From positions 1 through 38,393 of the forward strand of contig JAOBWK010000032.1 of the NCBI GenBank assembly GCA_025463305.1: a stretch of DNA of 38,393 nt. Direction: 5' to 3'. Under the pieces are notes generated by a model. It ran no database searches, had not been told where the DNA came from, and saw only the letters and a list, made by a program, of their open reading frames with translations. Shown piece after piece: positions 5,562-10,067 of this stretch; position 1 is the first letter of the stretch, and every line of letters begins with the position of its first letter. The position numbers and the translations under genes were made by a program. This stretch comes from Ilumatobacteraceae bacterium. Lineage in GTDB: Bacteria; Actinomycetota; Acidimicrobiia; Acidimicrobiales; Ilumatobacteraceae.

Positions 5562-6200
5562 ATGACCACGCTCAGGGCCCACAACATCTCGATGTCGATC
5601 GACGGTTACGCCGCCGGACCGGCGCAGGACCTCGACAACCCGATGGGCGTCGGCGGCATGCCGCTGCACGAGTGGGTGTTCGGCTGCCGGGCCGGCCGGA
5701 CCATGATCGGCCTCGACGTCGACCCGTCGATGCCGGCCACCGTCGACGACGACTTCATCGCGGCCGGCACCGACAACATCGGCGCCACCATCATGGGCCG
5801 CAACATGTTCGGGCCGGTCCGCGGTCCGTGGCTGGACTCGTCGTGGACGGGCTGGTGGGGCGACGAGCCGCCGTTCCACCATCCCGTGTTCGTGCTGACC
5901 CACCACGCCCGCCCGCCGCTGGAGATGGTCGGCACCACCTTCCACTTCGTCACGGACGGCATCGAGGCCGCGTACGCGCGGGCGACCGAGGCCGCCAACG
6001 GTGCCGACGTCCGCCTCGGCGGCGGCGCGTCCACCATCCATCAGGCCATGCGCGCCGGGCTGCTCGACTCGCTCCACGTCGCGATCGCGCCGGTGCTGCT
6101 CGGTGCCGGCGAGCGGTTGCTCACCGACGTCGACGGCTACGAGTGCACCGAGTACATCAGCTCACCCGCCGTCGCGCACATGCGGATCACCCGGCGCTGA
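5562..6200 (+). CDS. Dihydrofolate reductase / RibD C-terminal fold protein
   Basis: 212 residues. The N-terminus has the family pattern MSIDGYAAGP. Later blocks include ATIMGRNMFGPV, HHPVFVLTHHARPPLEM, FVTDGIEAAYARATEAANGADVRLGGGAST and LHVAIAPVLLGAGERLL, all typical of the RibD_C/YyaP-like NADPH-dependent reductases. These proteins share the dihydrofolate reductase fold but usually are not the folate enzyme; the substrate is unknown. ATG 5562 is chosen because a clear GGAGG lies 8 nt upstream, one of the better ribosome binding sites in this window. The gene converges on and overlaps the phosphatase gene at 6187 by 14 nt. Confidence 0.85.
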   Translation: MTTLRAHNISMSIDGYAAGPAQDLDNPMGVGGMPLHEWVFGCRAGRTMIGLDVDPSMPATVDDDFIAAGTDNIGATIMGRNMFGPVRGPWLDSSWTGWWGDEPPFHHPVFVLTHHARPPLEMVGTTFHFVTDGIEAAYARATEAANGADVRLGGGASTIHQAMRAGLLDSLHVAIAPVLLGAGERLLTDVDGYECTEYISSPAVAHMRITRR

Positions 6201-8625: not shown

Positions 8626-10067
8626 CCAGACTTCCTTCCCGAATCGGCTTCCTCCGACACATCGACGCCACCAGGTTCGGCGATCGCGACGAGGTGGATG
8701 CCGTGACTGCCCAGCACCAGCTCGCGAACGCGCTCCGAGTGGGCCATGCCGCGCGACTTGCGCAGGTACAGCGACCGGTGCAGCCGCCCCGAGACCTCCT
8801 CGTTGCCGAGTTGGATCCACGTGTCGATCAGCGACGACACCGACGTCTCCTCGATTGCGTGGCGGCTGGTGAGGCTGGTGAAGACCGACGTGATGTTGCG
8901 TTGCTTCAAGAAGTCGACCATGCGCATCAACATCCCCTTGATGTCCTCGCGTGAGCCGATGGCCTGGAAGTCGGTGATCGGGTCGAGCACCACGACGTCG
9001 GGTCGTACTTCCTCCACGTGTCGGTGGAGCACGGCGAGGTGGTGCTCCAGGCCGACCTGGGTCGGGCGTCCTGCGACCAGGTGGAGCGTGCCCGAGTCGA
9101 GGGCCGGCTGGAGCTCGATCCCGACCGAGCGCATGTTGCGCACGATCTGGGAGACGGACTCCTCGAACGCGAAGTACGACGTGACGTCGCCACGAGCGCA
9201 CGCCGCCTCGGCCAGCGCTGCGGCGAGGGTGGTCTTGCCGGTGCCCGAACCGCCCGACACCATCGTCGTCGTGCCCCGGTAGACACCACCGGTCGACATC
9301 ATCGCGTCGAGATCGGCGACGCCCGTCGAGATGATCTCGGTCGATGCCGCGTAGGAGAGGTCGAACGAGGTGATCGGGACGACGCTGATGCCGGTGTCGT
9401 CGATGAGGTACGGGTACTCGTTGAGCCCGTGCGCGGAGCCTCGGAACTTGACGACACGCAAGCGCCGGGTGGCCAGCTGCTCGCTGACGCGGTGGTCGAG
9501 CACGATCACGCAGTCGGACACGTACTCCTCGAAGCCGTACCGGGTCAGCGACTGATCACCCCGTTCGGCCGTGACGATCGACGTGACGCCGCGCTCGCCG
9601 AGCCAGCGGAACAGCCGGCGCAGCTCGGCGCGCAGCCGGGCGGTGTCGTCGAGCCCGGAGAACAGCACCTCCAAGGTGTCGATCACCACCCGCTTCGCAC
9701 CCACCGTGCGGATGGCGAGGTCGAGCCGGATGAACAGCGCCTCGAGATCGAAGTCGCCGGTCTGCTGGATCTGGTCGCGATCGACCTGCACGTAGTCGAC
9801 CTCGAGCATGCCGTCGTCGATCAGGTGCTGCAGGTCCTGCCCGAGCGAACGGGCGTTGGCGACGAGATCGTCCTCACGCTCCTCGAACGCGATGAAGACA
9901 CCCGGCTCACCCCGCGCGGCGCCGTTCGTGAGGAACGTCGAACCGAACAGGGTCTTGCCACAGCCGGGCCCACCGGACAGGAGGGTCGTGCGACCACGCG
10001 GCAACCCTCCGTTGGTGATCTCGTCCAAACCCGAGATGCCCGTCTCACAATGCTCGACCGTCCTCAC
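8622..10067 (-). CDS. kaiC: KaiC-family double-domain ATPase
   Basis: 481 residues with two RecA-like domains. CI has Walker A GGPGCGKT (32-39) and catalytic Glu pair EE 62-63. CII has Walker A GGSGTGKT (272-279) and Glu pair 302-303. The CII segment aligned with the autophosphorylation site has S411-S412 where Synechococcus KaiC has S431-T432; the position of T426 is a Glu (E406). The protein ends about 27 residues after GSHG and lacks the long C-terminal tail and A-loop to which KaiA binds, and no kaiA is present. Start GTG 10067 is supported by GGAGG 5 nt upstream and by homology beginning at once (CETGISGLDEITNGGLP). It heads the kaiC-kaiB-phosphatase operon. Likely activities are ATP hydrolysis and possible autokinase/autophosphatase; whether it oscillates is unknown. 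Confidence 0.95.
   Translation of the reverse strand: MRTVEHCETGISGLDEITNGGLPRGRTTLLSGGPGCGKTLFGSTFLTNGAARGEPGVFIAFEEREDDLVANARSLGQDLQHLIDDGMLEVDYVQVDRDQIQQTGDFDLEALFIRLDLAIRTVGAKRVVIDTLEVLFSGLDDTARLRAELRRLFRWLGERGVTSIVTAERGDQSLTRYGFEEYVSDCVIVLDHRVSEQLATRRLRVVKFRGSAHGLNEYPYLIDDTGISVVPITSFDLSYAASTEIISTGVADLDAMMSTGGVYRGTTTMVSGGSGTGKTTLAAALAEAACARGDVTSYFAFEESVSQIVRNMRSVGIELQPALDSGTLHLVAGRPTQVGLEHHLAVLHRHVEEVRPDVVVLDPITDFQAIGSREDIKGMLMRMVDFLKQRNITSVFTSLTSRHAIEETSVSSLIDTWIQLGNEEVSGRLHRSLYLRKSRGMAHSERVRELVLGSHGIHLVAIAEPGGVDVSEEADSGRKSG

What the first reader, a model, noticed from the sequence alone, without database searches (positions are those of the whole stretch)
6187..10067. KaiC-KaiB operon coupled to a PAS/GAF/PP2C phosphatase, without KaiA
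kaiC and kaiB overlap by ATGA and the 694-residue sensor phosphatase starts 9 nt after kaiB, so the three form one operon. Cyanobacterial clocks read out KaiC through histidine kinases; a SpoIIE-type Ser/Thr phosphatase with two PAS domains and a GAF domain as partner suggests a different output, for example dephosphorylation of KaiC S411/S412 or of an anti-sigma antagonist. Kai proteins outside cyanobacteria are known, but I am not aware of a characterised system with this phosphatase arrangement.
Basis: partly seen in the sequence, partly recalled or inferred. Interest (0 to 1): 0.8.

Follow-up and report, generated by a model that had tools for sequence, protein, structure and literature searches.

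The report
KaiC-KaiB timer with sensor phosphatase
An actinobacterium (judged from its closest relatives) carries two clock-like proteins, KaiC and KaiB, in one operon with a sensor-controlled serine phosphatase, an arrangement conserved in relatives that suggests a molecular timer read or reset by removing phosphates rather than through the usual histidine kinase.

Summary
In detail: on the minus strand lie kaiC (8622-10067), kaiB (8281-8625, 4-nt overlap) and a PAS-PAS-GAF-SpoIIE phosphatase (6187-8271, 9 nt further). The order is conserved: the 6 full-length members of this phosphatase subfamily whose context I could read (window plus five genomes) all follow kaiC-kaiB; 21 more distant SpoIIE paralogues showed no Kai gene in their short flanks. 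The linked KaiCs fall in one clade. First, 61 of 69 listed sister phosphatases carry an RsbW-like HATPase domain, and the two nearest genomes hold an rsbV-rsbW-sigB row elsewhere, favouring sigma-factor partner switching as output. Second, 7 of 7 phosphatase-linked KaiCs (one with a divergent phosphatase) lack the C-terminal coiled coil that Rhodobacter sphaeroides KaiC needs to shed its own phosphates; 12 of 13 KaiC2-type proteins linked to kinases, a response regulator or GGDEF-EAL proteins keep it. So the phosphatase may instead, or also, reset KaiC. No KaiA was found in five relatives. Ten open-access literature searches showed no such system. I rate it a new variant of the KaiBC timer; contact and substrate are not shown.

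The parts
8622..10067 (-). kaiC, double-domain KaiC2-type, 481 aa, GTG start
   Evidence: Pfam PF06745 two stretches; PRK09302 617 bits; closest solved sequence R. sphaeroides KaiC 8db3 E 2.9e-161
8832..8837 (-). codons of KaiC Ser411-Ser412, presumed autophosphorylation sites
   Evidence: aligned with Ser413/Ser414 of R. sphaeroides KaiC (sites named in PMC10076222, passages); Ser411 in 125 of 125 and Ser412 in 124 of 125 clade rows (P0124 and L044 are one protein)
8625..8684 (-). last 20 residues of KaiC: short tail without the coiled coil and without the LTGxAR motif of other KaiC2 proteins
   Evidence: tail comparison
8281..8625 (-). kaiB, 114 aa, overlaps kaiC by 4 nt
   Evidence: PF07689 E 1.3e-27; closest solved sequence R. 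sphaeroides KaiB 8fwj chain M E 8.2e-34
6187..8271 (-). PAS-PAS-GAF-SpoIIE sensor phosphatase, 694 aa, starts 9 nt after kaiB
   Evidence: Pfam; AlphaFold2 model mean pLDDT 86.7, pTM 0.51
8041..8271 (-). PAS domain 1 (residues 1-77)
   Evidence: PF00989 E 2.4e-16
7495..7809 (-). PAS domain 2 (residues 155-259)
   Evidence: PF08448 E 1.2e-16
6943..7386 (-). GAF domain (residues 296-443)
   Evidence: PF01590 E 6.7e-10
6199..6771 (-). SpoIIE-type PP2C domain (residues 501-691 by Pfam; Asp492 just before it belongs to the same fold); Asp492, Asp510, Asp634, Asp683 kept
   Evidence: PF07228 E 6.7e-43; the Asp columns are invariant in 22 sequences and align with Rv1364c 3ke6; fold match 3ke6_A rmsd 2.9

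Best explanation
A KaiC-KaiB timer without KaiA whose dedicated partner is a sensor-regulated SpoIIE-type serine phosphatase. KaiC autophosphorylates S411/S412; KaiB binds KaiC; the Kai state, together with signals sensed by the PAS-PAS-GAF part, sets the activity of the PP2C domain. The most likely substrate is the phosphoserine of a STAS anti-sigma antagonist (RsbV type), so that a sigma-B/F/G-like factor is released at a given Kai state. Shown: the genes, domains, kept catalytic residues, conserved order, co-inheritance, and an rsbV-rsbW-sigB row in the two nearest genomes. Inferred: KaiC kinase activity (from R. sphaeroides), Kai-phosphatase contact, substrate and direction of signalling.
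For: Third gene of kaiC-kaiB in 6 of 6 full-length subfamily members with readable context. In 395 genomes of the class, P0003-like proteins at E<=1e-60 occur in 2, both beside kaiBC (only the 2 best candidates per genome were scored). In 248 genomes of an order, the HATPase-bearing homologue P0034 hits 13; its 3 full-length matches are beside kaiBC, and the 21 other matches (weaker, E 1e-107 or worse) show no Kai gene in their ~1.5 kb flanks (4 candidates scored per genome). Distance matrices of 25 KaiC-phosphatase pairs correlate, r 0.95, 0 of 5000 permutations as high. Of relatives P0014-P0082, 61 of 69 list the RsbW-like PF13581 (counted by eye); G380's bears it too. Closest solved relative by sequence, and best PP2C match by fold (rank 4 after DosP chains that match the PAS part), is Rv1364c RsbU-RsbW. 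G001 and G002 encode STAS, HATPase_c_2 (below Pfam cut-off) and a SigBFG-type sigma in a row. In other KaiBC loci the third gene is also a signalling protein, histidine kinase or GGDEF-EAL, several with PAS domains.
Against: No STAS, anti-sigma or sigma gene among the window's Pfam-scanned proteins. P0004-P0013, the relatives nearest the window's phosphatase, lack the fused HATPase (0 of 10). STAS and sigma genes are found in all five relatives (5 to 12 STAS and 9 to 21 sigma matches each), so their presence is weak evidence. Coil loss in KaiC points to KaiC itself as substrate. The co-inheritance correlation may partly reflect species phylogeny.
Confidence: 0.5

Rival explanations
1. The phosphatase acts on KaiC: it removes phosphate from S411/S412 and so resets a coil-less KaiC that cannot do this efficiently by itself. 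KaiB would help by opening the KaiC hexamer and exposing the sites.
For: 7 of 7 phosphatase-linked KaiCs lack the long C-terminal extension, including G968, whose phosphatase is only 23% identical to P0003 and whose KaiC lies outside the clade of the others; 12 of 13 KaiC2-type proteins linked to histidine kinase, response regulator or GGDEF-EAL keep it. In R. sphaeroides the wild type loses phosphate at 11.5 per hour in ADP while the coil-less mutant shows little dephosphorylation (PMC10076222, section 7 read in full), and KaiB takes coil-less hexamers apart into monomers (same paper, passage).
Against: Only two apparent origins. One coil-less KaiC is linked to a histidine kinase (L111). The eight distant kaiB-first KaiCs fetched also lack the coil and have no phosphatase in their regions. 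Conservation of S411/S412 does not discriminate: 7 of 8 kinase- or response-regulator-linked KaiC2 proteins also have both Ser; the first Ser is lost mainly in the GGDEF-EAL group. SpoIIE-type phosphatases with known substrates act on STAS proteins (recalled). The fused RsbW-like domains of sister proteins have no role in this model.
Confidence: 0.28
2. The three proteins share a transcript and a physiological context, but the phosphatase neither reads nor resets KaiC; it answers to its own PAS/GAF ligands and acts on an unrelated target.
For: Pfam reports no KaiB-like, receiver or RsbU_N domain in the phosphatase; no contact was tested.
Against: Order kept in 6 of 6 members; no full-length member with readable context was found away from kaiBC; KaiC and phosphatase distances match; a second, divergent phosphatase stands at the same place in G968.
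Confidence: 0.13
3. Input rather than output: the PAS/GAF phosphatase feeds an environmental signal into the KaiC cycle as the entrainment route.
For: Two PAS and one GAF domain in front of the catalytic domain, joined by long helices in the model; no KaiA found in relatives.
Against: In R. sphaeroides the ATP/ADP ratio alone resets KaiBC in vitro (PMC10076222, section 8 read in full); no ligand is known here.
Confidence: 0.09

Closest known systems
Rhodobacter (Cereibacter) sphaeroides KaiBC hourglass timer (PDB 8dba, 8db3, 8fwi, 8fwj)
   Same: Closest solved KaiC and KaiB by sequence; same order kaiC-kaiB-third signalling gene; two Ser phosphosites; no KaiA
   Different: Its third gene is annotated as an HWE histidine kinase; its KaiC has a 104-residue tail after the aligned part, absent here
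Cyanobacterial KaiABC clock
   Same: KaiC with two ATPase domains, KaiB of the same Pfam family
   Different: No KaiA found in five relatives; TIGR02655 and TIGR02654 cut-offs not reached; third gene is a phosphatase
RsbU/RsbP-type sigma-B phosphatases and Rv1364c (its PAS and STAS parts recalled)
   Same: SpoIIE-type PP2C with sensory N-terminus; sister members fuse an RsbW-like domain
   Different: Encoded with kaiC-kaiB; no RsbU_N domain reported; the window member lacks RsbW and STAS parts
Actinobacterial KaiBC loci with GGDEF-EAL or histidine kinase as third gene
   Same: Same place in the operon, several with PAS domains
   Different: Different output enzyme; KaiC keeps the coil in all but one of those counted (L111)

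Membership tests
KaiC2-type KaiC | Two KaiC ATPase domains with Walker A and paired catalytic Glu | tested here: met
   GGPGCGKT and EE in CI, GGSGTGKT and EE in CII; PF06745 in two stretches
KaiC2-type KaiC | Two serine phosphosites instead of Thr-Ser | tested here: met
   S411-S412; definition from PMC10076222 passage
KaiC2-type KaiC | C-terminal extension forming a coiled coil (predominant in the subgroup) | tested here: not met
   481 aa; about 20 residues after the conserved part against 83-113 in coil-bearing relatives
KaiB | KaiB domain, PF07689 | tested here: met
   E 1.3e-27, 95.8 bits, cut-off 27
KaiB | NCBIfam equivalog cut-offs TIGR02654 and PRK09301 | tested here: not met
   102.8 against 145.3 and 107.4 against 110
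KaiABC circadian clock | KaiA present | tested here: not met
   PF07688 in 0 of 5 relatives; not in the window; the window's own genome is not held
KaiABC circadian clock | Self-sustained, temperature-compensated rhythm | not testable with these tools
   needs purified proteins
SpoIIE/RsbU PP2C phosphatase | SpoIIE-type catalytic domain with metal-binding Asp residues | tested here: met
   PF07228 E 6.7e-43; D492, D510, D634, D683 invariant in 22 sequences and aligned with 3ke6; that these Asp bind metal is recalled
sigma-B partner-switching system | Cognate STAS and RsbW genes beside the phosphatase | tested here: not met
   none among the window's Pfam-scanned proteins
sigma-B partner-switching system | STAS, RsbW and sigma-B-like genes in the same genome | tested here: inconclusive
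   row of three in G001 and G002, RsbW match below Pfam cut-off; window genome not held
R. sphaeroides-type KaiBC timer | Histidine kinase as third gene | tested here: not met
   SpoIIE phosphatase instead; kinase in the R. sphaeroides record

The most novel reading that the evidence does not exclude
A KaiC timer reset in trans: KaiC has lost the coiled coil that drives its own dephosphorylation, and a dedicated, environment-sensing serine phosphatase encoded in the same operon has taken over the reset step, on at least two separate occasions in Actinomycetota. This would be a KaiC cycle built from autokinase plus separate phosphatase, unlike the single-enzyme cycles known.
Probability: 0.28. 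Interest if true: 0.87.

Novelty: new variant of a known kind. Interest (0 to 1): 0.66.

Why it matters
The outputs of KaiBC systems outside cyanobacteria are mostly unclear (so stated for non-cyanobacterial Kai proteins in the abstract of PMC5520375). A conserved operon that couples them to a phosphatase rather than a histidine kinase offers a link between a KaiC timer and either the general stress response or an external reset of KaiC. Both can be tested with a few purified proteins. It also suggests why KaiA-less KaiC proteins differ in their C-terminal tail: the tail may be dispensable where a phosphatase is supplied.

Tried and rejected
Chance adjacency: rejected, order kept in relatives. 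KaiA-like RsbU_N domain in the phosphatase as a hidden KaiA: Pfam shows PAS at residue 1 and no RsbU_N; rejected as far as sequence shows. 'A-loop motif lost in the whole clade': rejected; 81 of 120 listed KaiCs keep an LTGxAR-like motif by regular expression, 39 do not, among them all 10 rows of the window's subclade in the tree. All 120 listed (a capped list, best 120 of 7999) are 470-530 aa, so none has a coil-length tail. 'Coil loss marks phosphatase linkage exactly': rejected; L111 is coil-less and kinase-linked. A further test on G1131 was void: its KaiC has the coil, but the third gene runs off the contig. Of the other KaiB carriers in that search, G1092 and G1201 had no KaiC match in the fetched regions. 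My HATPase label by regular expression missed P0026, P0052 and P0072, which list PF13581, so the 7 changes counted there are unreliable. My first context labels for L111, L112 and L114 (HK) were BLAST-based; Pfam corrected L112 to a phosphatase, so L112 is wrongly labelled HK in the tree, and L082 (unk there) is GGDEF-EAL. Third-gene labels of L046 and L047 rest on the records' product names and L113 on BLAST. L040 and L041 have no same-strand gene right after kaiB (L040's convergent neighbour resembles a GGDEF-EAL protein); their KaiCs keep the coil and they are not in the 13. No complex could be predicted with the tools; pTM 0.51 means the domain arrangement is unsure. Literature: ten searches of the open-access library; none of the titles, abstract starts or passages I saw describes a KaiBC-SpoIIE operon. 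Papers of subscription journals are mostly not held.
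Full report
What is there. The window carries, on the minus strand, kaiC (10067-8622), kaiB (8625-8281) and a 694-residue phosphatase (8271-6187). kaiC and kaiB overlap by four bases and the phosphatase starts nine bases after kaiB. Pfam confirms two KaiC domains, one KaiB domain, and PAS, PAS_4, GAF and SpoIIE in the phosphatase. Upstream on the same strand, 56 bases away, is an EamA transporter gene; downstream a convergent RibD_C gene overlaps the phosphatase end by 14 bases. 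No STAS, anti-sigma or sigma gene was found among the window proteins scanned. No whole genome is held for the window.

The Kai proteins. KaiC is closest to R. sphaeroides KaiC among solved sequences (8db3, E 2.9e-161), and KaiB to its KaiB (8fwj, E 8.2e-34). KaiC has both Walker A motifs and both Glu pairs. In 125 clade rows (120 listed homologues including the window's own, plus five loci; P0124 and L044 are one protein) Ser411 is kept in 125 and Ser412 in 124. These align with the R. sphaeroides phosphosites Ser413/Ser414 (PMC10076222, passages). Not all of the 125 are known to be phosphatase-linked. In 16 other KaiC2-type rows Ser412 is kept in 16 and Ser411 in 9; the losses are in the group of GGDEF-EAL-linked KaiCs and its close kin (L037, L038, L041, L042, L043, L082, L113), while 7 of 8 linked to a kinase or response regulator keep both. 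So the Ser pair does not single out phosphatase linkage. KaiA (PF07688) was found in 0 of 5 relatives that have the operon; of the 14 control genomes it rang only in S. elongatus.

The phosphatase. The Asp residues of the PP2C centre (D492, D510, D634, D683) are invariant in 22 aligned relatives and align with Rv1364c; that they bind metal is recalled. The AlphaFold2 model has mean pLDDT 86.7 and pTM 0.51. Its PP2C domain matches Rv1364c RsbU-RsbW at 2.9 A over 234 columns, the best-ranked PP2C chain; DosP chains, matching the PAS part, rank higher. Among the listed near relatives, P0004-P0013 (0 of 10) lack and P0014-P0082 (61 of 69, counted by eye) bear the RsbW-like PF13581. On the tree the window's phosphatase lies in a clade of 10 rows (SH-aLRT 100) without that domain.

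Conservation of the operon. Two named MAG contigs, JAOBWO010000187.1 (Acidimicrobiales; genome G001) and JAOBWQ010000400.1 (Ilumatobacteraceae; G002), encode the phosphatase at 63-64% identity directly after kaiC-kaiB. In 395 genomes of the class, P0003-like proteins at E<=1e-60 occur in 2 (G002, G380), both beside kaiBC; only the 2 best candidates per genome were scored. In 248 genomes of an order, the HATPase-bearing homologue P0034 finds 13 genomes. Its 3 full-length matches (G380, G689, G707; E 1e-262 or better) are the gene after kaiB. The 21 other matches (E 1e-107 or worse, among them a 36% paralogue in G380 itself that covers 50-694 of 822) show no Kai gene in their ~1.5 kb flanks; 4 candidates per genome were scored. 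Together with the window and G001 this makes 6 of 6. As a second line, 22 of 79 near-family phosphatases share the exact longest-contig length with one of 117 KaiC hits, against 0 of 40 far phosphatases and a shift control of mean 0.6, maximum 3. Species phylogeny may contribute to this.

How common. KaiB above the Pfam cut-off is in 10 of 395 genomes of the class, two of them marginal (G198, G338); in 3 of 200 of the family, of which G001 and G002 have the phosphatase and G403 a GGDEF-EAL protein; at E<=1e-10 in 18 of 396 of the phylum, in 6 of 199 of the class of G968 and in 1 of 13 of the order of G763. Among the 18 of the phylum search I saw a phosphatase at the third place in G002 and, divergent, in G968; several loci were seen only with ~1.5 kb flanks. 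The arrangement is thus a minority among Kai carriers. Other Kai loci have a hybrid histidine kinase (L036, L039, L043, L110), a histidine kinase (L111, L114) or a GGDEF-EAL protein (L037, L038, L042, L082; L113 by BLAST) at this place. R. sphaeroides has an annotated HWE histidine kinase.

A KaiC clade of its own. In a tree of 54 KaiCs the phosphatase-linked ones other than G968's lie in one clade of 29 rows (SH-aLRT 100). It holds no KaiC with a known kinase or GGDEF-EAL partner; 17 rows are phosphatase-linked by locus (6) or contig length (11) and 12 have unknown context. G968's KaiC (L112, labelled HK there before the correction) lies outside it.

The coil. In R. sphaeroides, the wild type loses phosphate at 11.5 per hour in ADP, whereas the coil-less mutant shows little dephosphorylation (PMC10076222 section 7, read in full). 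KaiB also breaks coil-less hexamers into monomers (passage). Among KaiC2-type loci with a known third gene, 7 of 7 phosphatase-linked KaiCs lack the coil-length tail (window, G001, G002, G380, G689, G707, G968). Of 13 linked to a kinase, response regulator or GGDEF-EAL protein (L036, L037, L038, L039, L042, L043, L046, L047, L082, L110, L111, L113, L114), 12 keep it (83-113 residues); L111 does not. L040 and L041 have no same-strand gene right after kaiB and L151's third gene is cut off; all three keep the coil and are not counted. G968 is an apparently independent case: its KaiC groups with kinase-linked ones (support 82, not starred), and its PAS-PAS-GAF-SpoIIE protein is only 23% identical to P0003, less than P0096 (33%) and P0101 (29%), SpoIIE proteins of unknown context. 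Of the 120 listed KaiCs, 81 keep a short LTGxAR motif; the 10 rows of the window's subclade lack it.

Mechanism. Two models stand. Output model: Kai state and PAS/GAF ligands set the PP2C activity, which dephosphorylates a STAS anti-sigma antagonist. For it speak the substrate class of the family (recalled), the fused RsbW-like domain in sister proteins, the Rv1364c resemblance, and an rsbV-rsbW-sigB row in G001 and G002. Reset model: the phosphatase removes phosphate from a KaiC that has lost the coil. For it speaks the coil correlation, seen with two divergent phosphatases. The two are compatible. I give the output model 0.5 and the reset model 0.28. Neither contact nor substrate is shown here.

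Known or new. Ten open-access searches gave no description of a KaiBC-SpoIIE operon in what I saw (listings, abstract starts and passages; sections 7 and 8 of PMC10076222 in full). A review notes that the R. sphaeroides kaiBC operon includes a PAS-domain protein (PMC6627678, passage). In M. extorquens AM1 KaiC proteins are tied to temperature and UV stress (PMC8069551, passage), which fits a stress output. The components are all of known families; the combination and the KaiC clade are the new part. Hence: new variant of a known kind.

Noticed in passing
L112:3819-6053 (G968): kaiC-kaiB-kaiB followed by a divergent PAS-PAS-GAF-SpoIIE phosphatase, with a coil-less KaiC: an apparently independent second instance of the arrangement.
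   Followed up: partly
L037:6530-8407, L038:9827-11704, L042:9339-11273, L082:2220-4202: Actinobacterial kaiC-kaiB loci whose next sensor gene encodes a GGDEF-EAL protein, suggesting a cyclic-di-GMP link of KaiBC. Their KaiCs have lost the first of the two phospho-Ser (Ala or Thr instead).
   Followed up: partly
L043 and L044 (genome G001): One genome carries two KaiBC systems: one with the phosphatase and one with a hybrid histidine kinase.
   Followed up: no
L124:2907-4709 (G1028): A PAS-GGDEF-HD protein is the gene after kaiB-kaiC, on the same strand.
   Followed up: no
window 11089-19314: NMT1/THI5-like binding protein, two permeases, an ABC ATPase, a luciferase-like monooxygenase, an aldehyde dehydrogenase and an amidohydrolase in a row on the minus strand: looks like an uptake and breakdown operon.
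   Followed up: no
window 37402-38373: IS481-type transposase at the window edge.
   Followed up: no
KaiC residue 406 (window 8850-8852): Five residues before the first phosphoserine the clade has Glu or Asp in 121 of 125 rows, where 16 other KaiC2-type rows have Thr (7), Ala (5), Ser or Gly; it may correspond to Thr426 of S. elongatus. The alignment here is loose.
   Followed up: no
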